Shown: positions 2,348-11,397 of the stretch, piece by piece
How positions within the stretch are numbered: the first letter of the stretch is position 1
How the letters are laid out: every line of letters begins with the position of its first letter
Origin: Candidatus Brocadia pituitae
GTDB lineage: Bacteria; Planctomycetota; Brocadiia; Brocadiales; Brocadiaceae
NCBI GenBank assembly: GCA_017347445.1
Contig: AP021856.1
Span: forward strand, 1,310,613-1,374,612
Direction: 5' to 3'
Length of the DNA stretch: 64,000 nucleotides
Translations under genes and position numbers: made by a program
Notes under the pieces: generated by a model
What the model saw: only the letters and a program-made list of their open reading frames with translations
Told to the model about the DNA's origin: nothing
Database searches by the model: none

Positions 2348-3147
2348 TCACCTCACGGTGTGCTCAATTGCATGCAAGAGATGGTATGCAAGTACTGAGA
2401 TAAATAGGTGTGCATCTACCCGGTGTTCCTTCTGATGATAGATCGGCCGCAAACCGAGATTGCTCTTGAGATCCCTGAACGCCCGCTCTATCTCCTTCTT
2501 GCTCATTTCGCACCCCTTCAACACCTCGATCATTCCCAGGCGCTTCCAGTGCTCCTCTGCCACCAGTACCGGACCCAGCATCCGCGGCTCTTCCACCTTC
2601 AGTTCGCCGACATCCGTCCTTATGACACCTCTGGACTTCCTTCTTCCCGTGCTGCCTTGAGCTTCTCCTTTCGCCTGAGTCGCGCTACAATCGATTCCGT
2701 CACCGCTTGCAGCCCTTCCGACTCATCCGGGAACATGCTCCTCTGTCCCGAGCCTCCGCCTGAGCATTTCTGTCAGCAGCGCTCACTGCCAGGATGAACC
2801 ATTCTTCCCACGATGAGCATCTTGGAATACGTAAGTTGCTCCCTGGTAAAATCAAGCCCATGTAATATCTTGTCATGCCCGTATTCATTCATTTGGCTTA
2901 TGGCCACATGTTCGGCCTCTACGGTCTTCGCATCATTTGTTATCAGGGAATCAAGATCCACTCGCTCATATTGAGCGGCTTCCTCAGCGGCAAGACATTC
3001 TTGTGCCCTGCCCAATCGCTCCTGTCTTATCTGTCTGGCATAATGTCTTGCTTTTGCCTCTATTTCAGGGTCCTCAGGAAATAATCTCTTTTGATTGGCT
3101 AAAAATCCTTCTCTTTTATGACGCTTTTGTTGAAGTTGGGTTAACAC
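2348..3147 (-). pseudogene. Degenerate IS1634/IS4-type DDE transposase
   Basis: Two minus-strand pieces of one transposase remain. The N-terminal piece is 3147-2773 (VDLDSLITNDAKTVEAEH, then ILHGLDFTREQL...MLIVGRMVHPGSER). The C-terminal piece is 2596-2348 (KSNLGLRPIYHQKEHRVDAH, then LAYHLLHAIEH, the typical end of IS1634 transposases). The segment between them, which should carry the catalytic DDE residues and about 250 residues of the barrel, is missing, and the frames no longer join. The extreme N-terminus is also absent. The element cannot encode an active transposase. Its 5' end touches the Pho box of the downstream porin. No terminal inverted repeats were identified. Confidence 0.8.
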
Positions 3148-3194
3148 AAAATTAACACTACCTTAATACTTTCTTAACATGCAAAGGTTATTAT
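3141..3194 (+). promoter_or_regulatory. Pho box: four TTAACA-type repeats with 11-bp period, plus -10 element
   Basis: TTAACA (3141-3146), TTAACA (3152-3157), TTAATA (3163-3168) and TTAACA (3174-3179) recur at exactly 11-base intervals on one face of the helix. A -10-like TATTAT follows at 3189-3194. Four TT(A/C/T)ACA-like hexamers with 4-6 base spacers are the binding pattern described for the Bacillus PhoP regulator, usually at about -20 to -60, which is where they fall here. The next genes are a phosphate-type porin and pstSCAB-phoU, so phosphate-starvation control is strongly suggested. The regulator itself is not in the window. Confidence 0.8.
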
Positions 3195-3254: not shown

Positions 3255-4649
3255 ATGAGGAGTAGATGGCGAATCTATCTTTTATTTGCGACGGTGATGT
3301 TGTGTGGTGCGTATTCAGGCAATGTGCTGCAAAGTGTGTTTGCCCAGAAGATGGTACCGCCTAATGAAGTGTCTCTATGTGAAACGGAAGAGCTGAAATG
3401 GCAATTGAAACAGATGGAGAAACTCATGCAGAGGCAGCAGGAACAGATACAGGCACTGAGAAATCGGATAGAGGCGCTCAGCACTGAACCTGCCCCGATC
3501 ACCCAAGCAGAGATCCAACATGAAATTAAAGACTATATTGCCACAGATGAGGCACGAAAGAAAATGGCGCTCGGCATGCCTGCAATGACAACCATTTATA
3601 CCCCTGATGAGGACAAATTTTCTATCGGTTTCAAATCGGCAGACGATGACTATTCGCTGGGTATAGGATTTAGATTACAATTCAGGGGTGCCTATAAAGA
3701 TAGGGATGAGGATGTCGGGAGGAATGATACCATGAATATGGATATCCGCCGGGCGCGGCTTTGCTTTGGGGGAAACATATACAGTAAAATGACGCACTAT
3801 TATGTAGAAATAGATGGGGATAGCTTCGACTTGGGTGTCAGGGATTTTTACGTATATTGGACTCCACTGCCAGAATTAAATGCAAAGATTGGCTATTTTA
3901 AAGTGCCATTTAACCAGCAAAGGATGACAACATCTGTGAAGCTCCTCTTTCAGGACAGGGCAATTGCCAGTGAAGAATTTGATCAGGACCGTGATTATGG
4001 GTTTGATATTTATGGCAAACCCTTTGACGGATACCTTGAATACCATGCAGCAATGTTTCAGGGGGCAGGTGAAGATGACGAGGATAGGGGCACGGAAGAC
4101 AATCCGGATAATGAACTTATGTACGTGTTTAACGTGAGATATAACCCCTTTGGGAAATATGATAATGTTGATGAAACCGATGTAAAGTATACGGAAAAAT
4201 TCAAGGCATCAGTTGCAGCTTCCGTTGTGGTTAACCCAAAGGAAAGGGATGGAAAGTTTGAGGATACCGATGGTCTCCAGGGAGTTGTTGAACTCAGTAT
4301 GAAATACCGTGGCTTCTCATGGCACAACGAGTATTTTATGAGGAGTGAGGAGCCTGAGCATGGTGGTGAATCATTCGAATCCAGCGGATTTTTTAGCCAG
4401 GCGGGATATTTTATAATACCCAAAAGACTTGAGGTTGCAGCCCGTTATTCTTACCTTGATCGGGACAAAGACGTATCTGATGACATCGGAAGGGAATACT
4501 CAGGCGGTATAAATTATTATTTCCGTCCCGGGGTTCATCGCTCCAAACTACAGGCAGATTTTGGACACTATGAGAACTCGGACGAACGGGGGAGAGAACA
4601 GACCGGAAGTGAAAACCAGGTTAGGCTGCAGTATCAGATAGTTTTTTAA
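3255..4649 (+). CDS. Phosphate-selective porin (OprO/OprP family)
   Basis: This outer-membrane beta-barrel channel is likely for phosphate or polyphosphate. The chosen ATG at 3255 follows a GGGGGG Shine-Dalgarno run (3242-3247) and gives a 464-residue protein beginning with a signal peptide (MRSRWRIYLLFATVML to about FAQ). A further in-frame ATG at 3201 would add 18 unlikely residues. After the signal comes a coiled coil (about residues 45-75, LKWQLKQMEKLMQRQQEQ), as in trimeric porins of this family. Long alternating aromatic/acidic strands then run to a C-terminal Phe (QIVF), typical for barrel assembly. It is the first gene of the Pho-box-controlled block and precedes pstS by 109 bases. 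Confidence 0.85.
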   Translation: MRSRWRIYLLFATVMLCGAYSGNVLQSVFAQKMVPPNEVSLCETEELKWQLKQMEKLMQRQQEQIQALRNRIEALSTEPAPITQAEIQHEIKDYIATDEARKKMALGMPAMTTIYTPDEDKFSIGFKSADDDYSLGIGFRLQFRGAYKDRDEDVGRNDTMNMDIRRARLCFGGNIYSKMTHYYVEIDGDSFDLGVRDFYVYWTPLPELNAKIGYFKVPFNQQRMTTSVKLLFQDRAIASEEFDQDRDYGFDIYGKPFDGYLEYHAAMFQGAGEDDEDRGTEDNPDNELMYVFNVRYNPFGKYDNVDETDVKYTEKFKASVAASVVVNPKERDGKFEDTDGLQGVVELSMKYRGFSWHNEYFMRSEEPEHGGESFESSGFFSQAGYFIIPKRLEVAARYSYLDRDKDVSDDIGREYSGGINYYFRPGVHRSKLQADFGHYENSDERGREQTGSENQVRLQYQIVF

Positions 4650-5739: not shown

Positions 5740-8184
5740 ATGAAGAGTAAAAAAAGAAGAAAGCTTGCCGATAAGACCGCTTACTGGGTGATTACGCTCG
5801 GTGGTGCGGCTACGGTTGTTGTAGTCTTTGCCCTCTTTTTCTTTATCTTTCTGGAGGTTTATCCTCTTTTGCAGGGTGCAACGGTAACTAAAGAAACTAC
5901 CAGTGCCTTACCGGGTAAGGCGGTTCTTCTTGGAGTGGACAATCATCAGGAAGTTGCTTATGCCGTGTATAACGATGGCACCATAGCATTCCTTTCCTTA
6001 CCGGATGGAGGGATCGTAAAAAAACACCAACTAACCGGTCTTCATCGTTCTTCCGCAACACATCAGGATACAACAAATATTCCTTCCTATTCCCCAGATT
6101 TGCAGGGGGGAGAAGAAACAAATTCCCTCAAAACCAAGATGCAGGGTAATTACCTGACATCAGTCAGTAAGGATCGCCACCGACTTATTTTAGGAACAAA
6201 TGACGGGCAGATTTTAACGGTATCTATCAATTTTTCCGAATCATTTGATAACGGGAAAAGGACCGTTTCCCCTGAGATAACGGAAGAGGGATTGATACTT
6301 GCCAGCCCAGAGAGCTGCGGAATTATTTCTGCTGTATCCAGGAGGAACGAAGGTACAACGGTTACCGTAGTTCATGCAGCGAATGGCAGATTAATACTCA
6401 TAGCCTCTGAGGTTGAACAGGCGCTCTTTGGTGCAGGAGATAAAAATGAGATCAAAAAGGATATTACCGCGCTTGTAATACCGTATAGCCGTGACCAATC
6501 ATTGTTAACTTACTTCAGGGATAAGAGGACTTCTCCCCTTTCCTTCTTATCCGAGGGGAAAGGAGGAAAATCCTGGCCTGACACGTCGACGGTATCACAT
6601 CCACCGATATATGCAACAGAAACTGAACAGACGGACAAGATCGAAATAACCGCTTTGGCGCTTGATCTTTTTATGGAAAACCTTTACATAGGGACATCTT
6701 CCGGAGAAATTTTTCACATTAACGTAAGCGATAGGAATAATCCCTGTCTTACAGAAAAGATAAGGGTGTCTGACAAGGCGATTACTGCATTAGGTTTTCT
6801 CCTGGGAGATGTTTCACTTGTTATTGGAGATGCCGGCGGTGGAGTGAACGTATGGATGCAGGTAAGGAATGAGGGATCTCCTTCAGTCTGGTTGTTGAGA
6901 AAAGTGCATACCCTTGCCTCTCACGGTGCTCCAATCGTGGAAATTGATACTTCGCAGAGAGATAAGGGTTTTGTGACAGCGGCAGCGGATGGAACCATTC
7001 ACCTCAACCATGCGACCTCTGAGCAGACACTGTTAAAATTTGCGACGGGCGCCCAGGCGTTCACCCTGTGCTTGTCGCCAAAAGCCGACGGTATTCTGGT
7101 TGCCGACGCAAAGGGACGTCTCCGGCAATGGCACCTTGCAAACCCGCACCCGGAAGCAACCTTAAAAACCCTGTTCGGCAGGGTATGGTATGAGGGTTAT
7201 GAAAAACCGGAGTTTGTCTGGCAGTCTACCGGCGGAACGGATGATTTTGAACCGAAGTTGAGCCTGATACCGCTTATCTTTGGCACGATTAAAGGCACTA
7301 TCTATGCCCTGATCATTGCCGTGCCTATTGGCATCTTTGCGGCGCTGTATACCTCTCAGTTTCTCCACAATTCCCTGAAAATAATAAAACCGGTTATTGA
7401 AATCATGGCGGCGCTTCCCAGCGTAATCCTTGGTTTTCTTGCCGGACTCTGGCTTGCGCCATGTATGGAGAGAATATTCCCGGCGATTATTGTTATGCCA
7501 TTTTTTATTACTCTTTCTATTATTTTAGCTCTTTTTTGCTGGAAGATCCTGCCGGTATTCGGAAAGGGCTGGTGCCGTCACGGAATAGAAGCGCTCTTCT
7601 TAATACCGTTCATTATTGGCGCTGTATATCTATCGATTCGGCTTGGCGGCATATACGAGTCTCTCTTTCTTGACGGTGATTACCGGGAATGGTTTTCCAA
7701 TATCCTTGGATTACCATATGACCAGAGAAATGCCCTGGTGGTGGGTGTTGCTATGGGATTTGCCGTGATTCCTCTCATCTTTACGATATCGGAAGATGCC
7801 ATGAGTAATGTTCCCAACAGCCTCAGATCGGCCTCGCTTGCCCTGGGCGCCACTCCATGGCAGACTGCGGTCAGGGTGGTACTGCCCACGGCAAGTCCGG
7901 GAATCTTTTCGGCAGTCATGATCGGGTTTGGCAGGGCTGTTGGTGAAACCATGATTGTACTCATGGCGACGGGTAACACCCCTATTATGGACTGGAATTT
8001 ATTCAACGGATTCCGGGCACTTTCTGCAAATATAGCAGTTGAAATACCAGAGGCACCGCAGGGGGGGACGCTCTATCGGGTGCTTTTTCTCGCCGCATTA
8101 CTCCTTTTTGTTACCACCTTTGTCGTCAATACCGTTGCGGAAACGGTCAGACAGAGAATGAAGCTCAGGTATAGCAAACTATGA
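5740..8184 (+). CDS. pstC: Phosphate ABC transporter permease PstC with large periplasmic propeller-like insert
   Basis: At 814 residues this is far longer than the classic 320-residue PstC. One N-terminal membrane helix (about 17-42) is followed by some 450 extracytoplasmic residues. These carry recurring beta-propeller-like blades (for example VSKDRHRLILGTNDGQIL, LYIGTSSGEIFHI, GFVTAAADGTIHLN, GILVADAKGRLRQW). The normal ABC permease domain (about 510-800) follows, including the coupling segment with ASLALGATPWQTAVRVVLP. Enlarged PstC proteins of this layout are known in Proteobacteria. The insert may contact PstS or a signalling partner, which is inference. The stop overlaps the pstA start by four bases (ATGA). 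Confidence 0.92.
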   Translation: MKSKKRRKLADKTAYWVITLGGAATVVVVFALFFFIFLEVYPLLQGATVTKETTSALPGKAVLLGVDNHQEVAYAVYNDGTIAFLSLPDGGIVKKHQLTGLHRSSATHQDTTNIPSYSPDLQGGEETNSLKTKMQGNYLTSVSKDRHRLILGTNDGQILTVSINFSESFDNGKRTVSPEITEEGLILASPESCGIISAVSRRNEGTTVTVVHAANGRLILIASEVEQALFGAGDKNEIKKDITALVIPYSRDQSLLTYFRDKRTSPLSFLSEGKGGKSWPDTSTVSHPPIYATETEQTDKIEITALALDLFMENLYIGTSSGEIFHINVSDRNNPCLTEKIRVSDKAITALGFLLGDVSLVIGDAGGGVNVWMQVRNEGSPSVWLLRKVHTLASHGAPIVEIDTSQRDKGFVTAAADGTIHLNHATSEQTLLKFATGAQAFTLCLSPKADGILVADAKGRLRQWHLANPHPEATLKTLFGRVWYEGYEKPEFVWQSTGGTDDFEPKLSLIPLIFGTIKGTIYALIIAVPIGIFAALYTSQFLHNSLKIIKPVIEIMAALPSVILGFLAGLWLAPCMERIFPAIIVMPFFITLSIILALFCWKILPVFGKGWCRHGIEALFLIPFIIGAVYLSIRLGGIYESLFLDGDYREWFSNILGLPYDQRNALVVGVAMGFAVIPLIFTISEDAMSNVPNSLRSASLALGATPWQTAVRVVLPTASPGIFSAVMIGFGRAVGETMIVLMATGNTPIMDWNLFNGFRALSANIAVEIPEAPQGGTLYRVLFLAALLLFVTTFVVNTVAETVRQRMKLRYSKL

Positions 8185-9779
8185 AAAATCTTCTGGGATC
8201 AGGTAATCCTTATATATGGCTGACGGCTGGAATGCTGACGATCTGTCTCCTGATGATATCTGGTTTAACTGTGCTGATTATGGTTAACGGATTTGGAATC
8301 TTTTGGCCACGCAAGATTGTTCAGTTTACCCTTCTGGACGGTGAGGTGATTTTAGGAGAAATTGCAAAAAGGGAGTCTGTTCCCCATCAAAAAGACGCTT
8401 ACCGGACAAAAGTCAAAGTTGGCAACAGGGACGTCTATGGAATGGACTTCCGGTGGATAGACAACGCAGATATTGTATCGCAGACTTACCCGGTGCATGC
8501 ACTGGTTTTTGAAAGACGTGAATGGGGCAATCTGTATGGCTTTTTACATGGTTTACGGCAGAATGGCGGTGTTAAACCTCTGAAACCAGAAAGTATGGCA
8601 TCTTTGCTCGGAGAGAGCCATGCCCTTTACAAAAAGATACGGTATATAGCGAAAAAGGAAATTGGTAATATAAATTACCGGATAGAAAAAACCCGTCTTG
8701 AATTAAAGCGTCTGGCGCTACTGCAACCCTCTGAAAAAATACAGAAAAGAGTCGCTGAGGTAAAGGCCAGGATGGAACATCTGGAAATACTATACCGGGA
8801 AAAAGAAGACACGCTTGCCGGGTTTTACAAGAAGGCGATGGAAAAAGAGGTCGTTGTGCTTCTTGCGGACGGCAGGGAAAAGATAGTGCCCGTTTTTCAG
8901 ATCATCCGAATCTCAATGCCAAATGAGATGGGAGTTTTTGCTAAAGTCGGTTTTTATATCGCAAAATTCTGGGAATTTATCTGGGGTGAACCGCGGGAGG
9001 CGAATACGGAGGGTGGTGTGTTTCCCGCTATTTTTGGGACGGTTATGATGGTGCTGATCATGAGCATTGCCGTTGTCCCGCTGGGGGTATTGACGGCGGT
9101 ATACCTCAAAGAATATGCCGGCGACAATTTTATTTCCAGGCTGGTGAGAATATCGGTGAGCAATCTGGCGGGTGTGCCGTCCATTGTCTTTGGTGTCTTC
9201 GGTCTAGGTTTTTTTATCTATCTTTTTGGCGGGGGTATTGATAAACTTTTCTTTTCTGAGACGCTGCCAACCCCTACGTATGGAACCGGTGGTATCTTAT
9301 GGGCATCGCTTACTCTGTCACTCCTGACCGTGCCGGTGGTTGTGGTGGCAACGGAGGAGGGGCTCTCTGCTGTGCCCAGGGCTATGCGTGAAGGCTCTTA
9401 TGCCCTTGGCGCTACGAAGATCGAAACGCTGTGGAAAGTGGTGCTACCGCAGGCGACCCCCGGCATACTTACCGGCACTATTCTGGCTATGGCAAGGGCT
9501 GCCGGAGAGGTTGCACCCCTGATGATTACCGGAGTCGTGAAACTGGCGCCCTCATTGCCAATTGACGGTTACTTTCCCTATATCCATCTGGAAAGAAAAT
9601 TTATGCACCTGGGATTTCATATTTATGATGTCGGTTTTCAATCACCCAATGTGGAAGCCGCCATCCCTATGGTTTATACCACCACCCTCGTCTTGCTCTT
9701 TACGGTGCTTATATTAAACCTTACGGCCATCGTAGTGAGAAATAAGTTGAAAAAATGGTACAACAGAGGGGCGCTGTAG
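8181..9779 (+). CDS. pstA: Phosphate ABC transporter permease PstA with extended periplasmic domain
   Basis: Second permease of the Pst system, 532 residues. One helix near the N-terminus (about 12-36) is followed by about 230 periplasmic residues, including a coiled coil at roughly 150-215 (YRIEKTRLELKRL and KEDTLAGFYKKAMEKEV). The canonical permease domain then carries the coupling motif EGSYALGATKIETLWKVVLP. The enlargement parallels that of PstC, suggesting that the two periplasmic extensions form one assembly. Translation is coupled to pstC through a four-base overlap. Confidence 0.92.
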   Translation: MKNLLGSGNPYIWLTAGMLTICLLMISGLTVLIMVNGFGIFWPRKIVQFTLLDGEVILGEIAKRESVPHQKDAYRTKVKVGNRDVYGMDFRWIDNADIVSQTYPVHALVFERREWGNLYGFLHGLRQNGGVKPLKPESMASLLGESHALYKKIRYIAKKEIGNINYRIEKTRLELKRLALLQPSEKIQKRVAEVKARMEHLEILYREKEDTLAGFYKKAMEKEVVVLLADGREKIVPVFQIIRISMPNEMGVFAKVGFYIAKFWEFIWGEPREANTEGGVFPAIFGTVMMVLIMSIAVVPLGVLTAVYLKEYAGDNFISRLVRISVSNLAGVPSIVFGVFGLGFFIYLFGGGIDKLFFSETLPTPTYGTGGILWASLTLSLLTVPVVVVATEEGLSAVPRAMREGSYALGATKIETLWKVVLPQATPGILTGTILAMARAAGEVAPLMITGVVKLAPSLPIDGYFPYIHLERKFMHLGFHIYDVGFQSPNVEAAIPMVYTTTLVLLFTVLILNLTAIVVRNKLKKWYNRGAL

Positions 9780-9878: not shown

Positions 9879-10658
9879 ATGAAAAAAAAGAGCATCACAG
9901 TCCCGGATCCGATAGTTAATATTATAGACCTTGCCCTTTATTATGGTAAGACAAAGGCGTTAAAAGAGATAAACCTGGATATTTCGAAAAAGAAGATAAC
10001 CTCTTTTATCGGCCCATCCGGGTGCGGGAAGTCCACCTTGATCCGGTGTTTGAACCGAATGAACGATCTCATAGACAGCGTGGCCATAGAAGGGTGCATT
10101 AAGATCGATGGTCAGGACATCTATGCCCCTGCGGTTGATGTCACAGAACTCAGGAAGAAGGTTGGTATGGTCTTCCAGAAACCAAATCCCTTCCCAAAAA
10201 CCATTTATGAGAATGTGGTTTACGGCCCCCGCGTTCAGGGGATTAATAAAAAGAGCATCCTGGACGAGCTTTGCGAAAATGCCCTGAAAAAGGCAGCGCT
10301 TTGGGACGAAGTAAAGGACCGCCTCCGGGTAAATGCCCTTGATCTTTCCGGGGGGCAGCAACAGCGGATTTGTATTGCCAGGGCAATTGCCACGGAACCG
10401 GAGATTATACTCCTTGATGAACCATGTTCCGCCCTCGATCCCATTGCCACAGCTAAGATAGAGGACATGCTGGTCGAACTGAAAAAAGATTACACCGTCA
10501 TTATCGTAACACATAATATGCAGCAGGCGGCCAGGATATCTGACTATACGGGGTTCTTTATGCTTGGTGAACTTATTGAGTTTAATGTTACCACCGATAT
10601 ATTCACCAATCCGCAGGAAAAAGAGACAGAAGATTATATTACGGGAAGGTTCGGATAA
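9879..10658 (+). CDS. pstB: Phosphate ABC transporter ATPase PstB
   Basis: This cytoplasmic ATPase drives phosphate import with PstC and PstA. Walker [10 protein letters not shown] is at 45-53, the signature LSGGQQQR at 156-163, and Walker B ending LLDEP at 178-182, followed by the PstB-typical CSALDP. The family motif [13 protein letters not shown] is present. Length 259 is normal. There is a 99-base gap after pstA and the same orientation, so it is very likely cotranscribed. Confidence 0.97.
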
Positions 10659-10731: not shown

Positions 10732-11397
10732 ATGACACGTGAGGCCTATCACAAGGCATTAAAAAATCTTGAGAGCGAAGTGCTGCAGATGGGAAACATG
10801 GTGGCACATGCCGTAAGGAAATCTGTGGAGGCATTGCAAAAAAGGGATATCAACGTATCCAATGAAATCGTAAAGAATGACCTCCTTATCAATAAAAAAC
10901 GGTTTGATATTGAAGAAAAGTGTATCTCTCTTATTGCTACCCAGCAACCGATGGCGGGTGATTTGAGGGAGCTGACTTCGATCTTGAGCATTGTAACAGA
11001 TCTTGAACGCATGGGTGACCACGCAGAGGGAATTGCAAAGATAAACATTTTGCTCGGTGATGAGCCCCTGGTGAAGCCCCTGATCGACATCCCCAGGATG
11101 GCCGATATAGGGCTATCTATGCTCGATACCTGCCTCAAGGCTTTTATCAAGCGGGATATAGAAATGGCAAGGCGTATTTGTAATGATGATGATCAGGTAG
11201 ATGCCCTGCATGACCAGATTTACCGGGAGCTGCTGGTGCTGATGATGGAGAACCCGAAGATAATTCATATGGCTACCTATCTCACCTGGGTATCTCACAA
11301 CCTGGAACGCATTGCAGACAGGGTAACAAACATTGCAGAGAGGATCGTATTTATGGTCACCGGAAAGATGGAAGAGATAAATGTATCAAAGTACTAA
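10732..11397 (+). CDS. phoU: Phosphate signalling regulator PhoU
   Basis: This all-helical cytoplasmic protein of 221 residues contains two PhoU repeats, each with the metal-cluster motif family (DLRELTSILSIVTDLERMGDHAEGIAK, and TWVSHNLERIADRVTNIAERI near the C-terminus). PhoU represses the Pho regulon when phosphate is ample, acting with the Pst transporter and a sensor kinase. It closes the operon. No phoR or phoB is present in the window. The start follows GGGAGAAATC. Confidence 0.95.
   Translation: MTREAYHKALKNLESEVLQMGNMVAHAVRKSVEALQKRDINVSNEIVKNDLLINKKRFDIEEKCISLIATQQPMAGDLRELTSILSIVTDLERMGDHAEGIAKINILLGDEPLVKPLIDIPRMADIGLSMLDTCLKAFIKRDIEMARRICNDDDQVDALHDQIYRELLVLMMENPKIIHMATYLTWVSHNLERIADRVTNIAERIVFMVTGKMEEINVSKY

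What the first reader, a model, noticed from the sequence alone, without database searches (positions are those of the whole stretch)
3141..3194. Bacillus-style Pho box in a Gram-negative pst locus
Seen: four TTAACA-like hexamers at exact 11-bp intervals, ending ten bases before a TATTAT -10 box, ahead of porin-pstSCAB-phoU. Known: B. subtilis PhoP binds four such TT(A/C/T)ACA repeats, whereas Proteobacterial PhoB uses CTGTCAT repeats. Inference: the regulator of this organism reads a repeat of the Gram-positive type, and the porin-pst-phoU block is one phosphate regulon unit.
Basis: partly seen in the sequence, partly recalled or inferred. Interest (0 to 1): 0.68.

Follow-up and report, generated by a model that had tools for sequence, protein, structure and literature searches.

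The report
Phosphate-starvation switch of anammox bacteria
The four short repeats are very probably the docking site of the phosphate-starvation regulator PhoB in front of an anammox bacterium's phosphate-uptake genes, written in a TTAACA spelling that is not special to Gram-positive bacteria and that tracks one amino acid of the regulator.

Summary
In detail: four 11-bp repeats, nine bases, then a TATTAT -10 box, ahead of porin-pstSCAB-phoU. The genome is a Brocadia-like anammox planctomycete. It holds the exact four-unit pattern once; the next best sites have two mismatches. The same box, with TANNNT nine bases after it, precedes porin-pst in 15 of 17 aligned Brocadiales promoters. In relatives it also precedes a second pstB-phoU pair, a phoB copy and signalling genes (37 matches in 17 genomes; reversed-pattern control 2). 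So it is a real Pho box, most likely read by the genome's single PhoB-like regulator.

'Gram-positive type' is not supported: cyanobacterial SphR uses CTTAACCT, and the layout equals E. coli pstS (same period, same nine-base gap). The spelling tracks the regulator: loci whose PhoB keeps the guanine-contacting Arg201 carry mostly G at repeat position 2 (36 of 48 units); those with Ser, Ala, His or Asn there carry T (68 of 70); Val-Gly and similar types mostly C (12 of 15). In this genome the strong-box regulon is this one operon; phoBR and the second phoU have no box. Binding and phosphate response are inferred, not measured.

The parts
3140..3179 (+). Pho box: four 11-bp direct repeats (NTTAAYA units at 3140, 3151, 3162, 3173)
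   Evidence: conserved in relatives
3189..3194 (+). -10 box TATTAT, nine bases after the last repeat; no -35 hexamer at 16-18 nt
   Evidence: TANNNT at this offset in 15 of 17 Brocadiales promoters
3255..4649 (+). outer-membrane porin of the phosphate-selective OprO/P family, first gene of the operon
   Evidence: PF07396, 58.6 bits
4759..5736 (+). pstS, phosphate-binding protein
   Evidence: TIGR02136 over cut-off
5740..8184 (+). pstC permease with a long N-terminal WD40/beta-propeller-like insertion
   Evidence: TIGR02138 over cut-off
8181..9779 (+). pstA permease with a long extra region
   Evidence: TIGR00974 over cut-off
9879..10658 (+). pstB ATPase
   Evidence: TIGR00972 over cut-off
10732..11397 (+). 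phoU
   Evidence: TIGR02135 over cut-off

Best explanation
The site is the binding site (Pho box) of the organism's PhoB-like response regulator, encoded about 2.28 Mb away (genome 3,592,572-3,593,252) next to its histidine kinase. When phosphate runs out, phosphorylated PhoB binds head to tail on the four 11-bp repeats, stands in for the missing -35 element and recruits sigma-70 RNA polymerase to the TATTAT -10. This switches on the porin, PstSCAB and PhoU as one operon. The repeat reads TTAACA rather than TGTCAT because PhoB of this lineage has Ala-Ser where E. coli PhoB has Arg200-Arg201; Arg201 hydrogen-bonds the guanine of TGTCA. Shown here: the box, its conservation and fixed spacing, its recurrence at phosphate genes in relatives, and the association of residue 201 with repeat position 2. 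Inferred: binding, phosphate response, co-transcription, and that residue 201 causes the spelling.
For: Unique exact site in the genome, absent from 200 Markov windows. Conserved ahead of porin-pst throughout Brocadiales with TANNNT exactly nine bases after it in 15 of 17, the same gap and register as E. coli pstS. Recurs in relatives ahead of pstB2-phoU2, phoU2 and a phoB copy; 37 matches against 2 for the reversed pattern. The genome has three OmpR-family regulators, one PhoB-like. The recognition helix keeps the Thr194 and Val197 equivalents but lacks Arg201, the residue that bonds guanine (PMC3973317). Repeat position 2 follows residue 201 across loci.
Against: No binding, expression or phosphate data. 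The window's own genome has only one such site, and phoBR itself has none. The PhoB-like protein scores below the TIGR02154 cut-off. The residue association has no phylogenetic correction and few independent clades; 12 of 48 units in the Arg201 class are not G.
Confidence: 0.88

Rival explanations
1. The box and its regulator are a Gram-positive (Bacillus PhoP-type) module acquired by this lineage.
For: The hexamer spelling fits TT(A/C/T)ACA. The kinase beside phoB passes the NCBIfam PnpS model (428 bits, cut-off 400) and falls just under the proteobacterial PhoR cut-off (325 against 334).
Against: The spelling is shared with cyanobacteria (PMC1906773). The regulator's best model is PhoB, though under its cut-off. 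The box is present in all main Brocadiales genera with a gradual change of regulator, not as an isolated import.
Confidence: 0.07
2. The repeats are bound by another OmpR-family regulator of the genome, such as the KdpE-like one, whose E. coli relative reads TTTA(T/C)A.
For: KdpE has His at the position of PhoB Arg201 and reads TTTA(T/C)A half-sites (PMC3264566); a KdpE-like regulator exists here.
Against: Box recurrence at pst, pstB2-phoU2 and a phoB copy in relatives points to phosphate control; position 2 of the box tracks PhoB across phyla.
Confidence: 0.03
3. The periodic hexamers are a chance product of AT-rich intergenic DNA.
For: The stretch is AT-rich (68% against 58% for the window).
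Against: 0 of 200 Markov windows contain it; it is unique in the genome and conserved with a fixed -10 gap in relatives.
Confidence: 0.01

Closest known systems
E. coli PhoB box of pstS
   Same: Four units at an 11-bp period, the last one nine bases before the -10 in the same register, no separate -35, ahead of pst
   Different: Units read TGTCAT; regulator has Arg200-Arg201; no porin gene at the head of the operon
Cyanobacterial SphR Pho box
   Same: 8-bp CTTAACCT repeats with 3-bp linkers, i.e. 11-bp period, TTAAC core, in a Gram-negative phylum (PMC1906773)
   Different: Described as at least three repeats; position after TTAAC is C rather than A; different phylum
B. subtilis PhoP box
   Different: Host phylum; B. 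subtilis PhoP was not compared here
KdpE half-sites
   Same: AT-rich TTTA(T/C)A repeats read by an OmpR-family regulator without Arg at the 201 position (PMC3264566)
   Different: Two half-sites, controls potassium transport

Membership tests
PhoB-class Pho box | Direct repeats at an 11-bp period (7 conserved, 4 less conserved bases) | tested here: met
   definition in PMC4415409
PhoB-class Pho box | Last repeat at a fixed short distance from a sigma-70 -10, replacing the -35 | tested here: met
   nine bases, 15 of 17 promoters, same as E. coli pstS
PhoB-class Pho box | Located ahead of phosphate genes, recurring within a regulon | tested here: met
   single site in this genome; recurrent in relatives at pst, pstB2-phoU2, phoU2, a phoB copy
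PhoB-class Pho box | Bound by a PhoB-family regulator and responsive to phosphate | not testable with these tools
   needs footprinting and expression data
E. coli-type (TGTCAT) Pho box | G at the second position of the repeat and Arg201 in the regulator | tested here: not met
   T in all four units; Ala-Ser in place of Arg-Arg; no good TGTCAT triple in the genome
PhoB (TIGR02154 equivalog) | Score over the curated cut-off | tested here: not met
   best-scoring model, 255.3 bits against a cut-off of 296.2
Gram-positive PhoP box | Repeat spelling TT(A/C/T)ACA, four copies | tested here: met
   three of four hexamers fit, the third is TTAATA; spelling is shared with cyanobacteria
Gram-positive PhoP box | Regulator belongs with Bacillota PhoP | not tested
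   no named Bacillota reference set at hand

The most novel reading that the evidence does not exclude
One amino acid of PhoB (the place of E. coli Arg201, perhaps with its neighbour 200) sets the spelling of the Pho box across phyla: Arg reads a G, small or polar side chains read a T, and the Val-Gly type reads a C at the second base of each repeat. Brocadiales, Nitrospira-like, Calditrichota and gammaproteobacterial boxes would then be dialects of one ancestral box.
Probability: 0.5. Interest if true: 0.6.

Novelty: new member of a known kind. Interest (0 to 1): 0.42.

Why it matters
The searches found no published Pho box for anammox bacteria or planctomycetes. A reliable box allows phosphate-regulon prediction in bacteria that are hard to grow in pure culture and that matter for nitrogen removal. 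The association between the recognition helix and the repeat gives a simple, testable rule for reading Pho boxes in uncultured phyla.

Tried and rejected
Rfam on the window: no match. Weaker repeat hits in this genome were checked where loci were inspected: none precedes a recognisable phosphate gene and several lie in coding sequence. The phoBR and mod-phoU2 regions have no box. A homologue of the box-bearing cNMP-domain protein exists in this genome, without a box. TGTCAT-type triples in this genome: only 3-mismatch matches, 14 against 5 in the reversed control, several of them copies of one repeated sequence. Literature searches for an anammox or planctomycete Pho box found none. L054, L060, L063 and L070 gave no significant box in the scanned stretch, and the best L058 stretch there is not a convincing box. 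A protein alignment call failed on strand and was redone in a script. One paper on PhoB-sigma contact was not held.

Full report
What is there. The window lies in a complete 4,075,302-bp genome. Its PstC relatives are Brocadia, Jettenia, Kuenenia, Loosdrechtia and Scalindua, so the organism is an anammox planctomycete, nearest to Brocadia-like genomes (inference from protein similarity). At 3140-3179 four repeats stand at an exact 11-bp period (GTTAACA, ATTAACA, CTTAATA, CTTAACA), followed by nine bases and TATTAT. Downstream are a porin, pstS, pstC, pstA, pstB and phoU in one direction. No -35 hexamer stands at the usual distance.

More than chance. The exact four-unit pattern is absent from 200 third-order Markov windows, occurs once in the genome, and the next independent sites carry two mismatches. 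In stretches upstream of pstC in relatives, a scan that ignores the second base of the repeat finds the same box above shuffles in nearly all Brocadiales loci that reach far enough upstream. Among 17 aligned promoters, the window's included, TANNNT begins exactly nine bases after the last repeat in 15, and no other offset exceeds three. L038 carries the box with one base missing between two repeats (sequence printed). L016 has no box directly ahead of the porin but one ahead of the preceding gene, which encodes an EAL-domain protein.

Recurrence. In 17 Brocadiales genomes the pattern with at most one mismatch is found 37 times, against 2 for the reversed pattern; a few of the 37 are overlapping frames of one site, and some without a near gene are probably chance. 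Besides porin-pst, the box precedes a pstB2-phoU2 pair, just behind the molybdate-type transporter ATPase gene, in four genomes, and phoU2 at the same place in one. It also precedes a phoB copy beside a gene that reads like an arsenate reductase (by eye), a cNMP-binding-domain protein, a small protein with a CPxCG-like motif that is followed by a CheW-domain protein, and an EAL-domain protein. In the window's own genome the box is found only once. phoBR has none, and phoU2 sits directly behind the molybdate-type ATPase gene with neither pstB2 nor box, which looks like a lineage-specific loss (inference).

The regulator. The genome has three OmpR-family regulators: a PhoB-like one beside a kinase that passes the PnpS model, one beside a CusS-like kinase (by eye) and a KdpE-like one (by eye). 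The PhoB-like protein is best matched by TIGR02154, but under its cut-off. In the PhoB-DNA structure Arg201 bonds guanine and Thr194 and Val197 touch thymines (PMC3973317, PMC3264566). This PhoB keeps the equivalents of Thr194, Val197, Arg203, Thr217 and Arg219 but has Ala-Ser in place of Arg200-Arg201.

Covariation. Boxes were chosen by positions 3 to 7 only, and position 2 was then read. Loci from genomes with Arg at 201: 36 G, 7 T, 5 A in 16 loci. Loci with Ser, Ala, His or Asn (Brocadiaceae, Scalindua, one genome labelled deltaproteobacterium, one other planctomycete): 68 T, 2 C, no G in 18 loci. The remaining types (Val-Gly, Val-Ser, Arg-Ala): 12 C, 3 T in 5 loci. For a second batch of genomes the box had been read before the regulator was looked up: L074, with C at all four positions, proved to be Val-Gly, and the Nitrospira and gammaproteobacterial loci with G proved to have Arg. 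KdpE, with His at this place, reads TTTA(T/C)A (PMC3264566), which agrees. Limits: the class borders were set by me, clades are few, genomes within them are related, the regulator taken is the best match to the Brocadia protein in each genome, and no phylogenetic correction was made.

Comparison. E. coli pstS, checked in a genome record, has the same register, four units and the same nine-base gap. Cyanobacterial SphR uses CTTAACCT at the same period (PMC1906773), and a review notes that the spelling differs between species (PMC4415409). So the spelling does not mark a Gram-positive origin. Two searches for an anammox or planctomycete Pho box found none; the library holds open-licence papers only.

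Verdict. This is a real, conserved Pho box of the anammox order, in a known class of site, with a spelling that the recognition helix can explain.

Noticed in passing
genome 2,993,858-2,999,112 (L180:5859-11113, minus strand), outside the window: A second OprO/P-like porin gene stands ahead of modA, a ModB-like permease, a ModC-like ATPase and a second phoU. In relatives a Pho box and a pstB2 gene lie between the ATPase gene and this phoU; here both are missing.
   Followed up: partly
window 5740-8184 and 8181-9779: PstC carries a long N-terminal WD40/beta-propeller-like insertion and PstA a long extra region; PstC relatives of the same length occur in Nitrospirota and gammaproteobacteria.
   Followed up: no
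L142:1498-2894 (genome G005): A second phoB copy with its own Pho box lies directly behind a gene that reads like an arsenate reductase and a transporter-like gene, suggesting a link between phosphate and arsenate control.
   Followed up: no
L022, L030, L037, L038, L049 and others, about 10-20 nt after the -10: Several Brocadiaceae pst promoters share an element like TTTGCATGATNTAAC near the expected transcript start; the window has at best a weak version (TTGGATGTTTATTTC).
   Followed up: no
L043 (record titled Klebsiella pneumoniae MAG): This locus resembles L044 (titled Deltaproteobacteria), with an identical PhoB recognition helix in the compared stretch; the Klebsiella label is probably wrong.
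   Followed up: no
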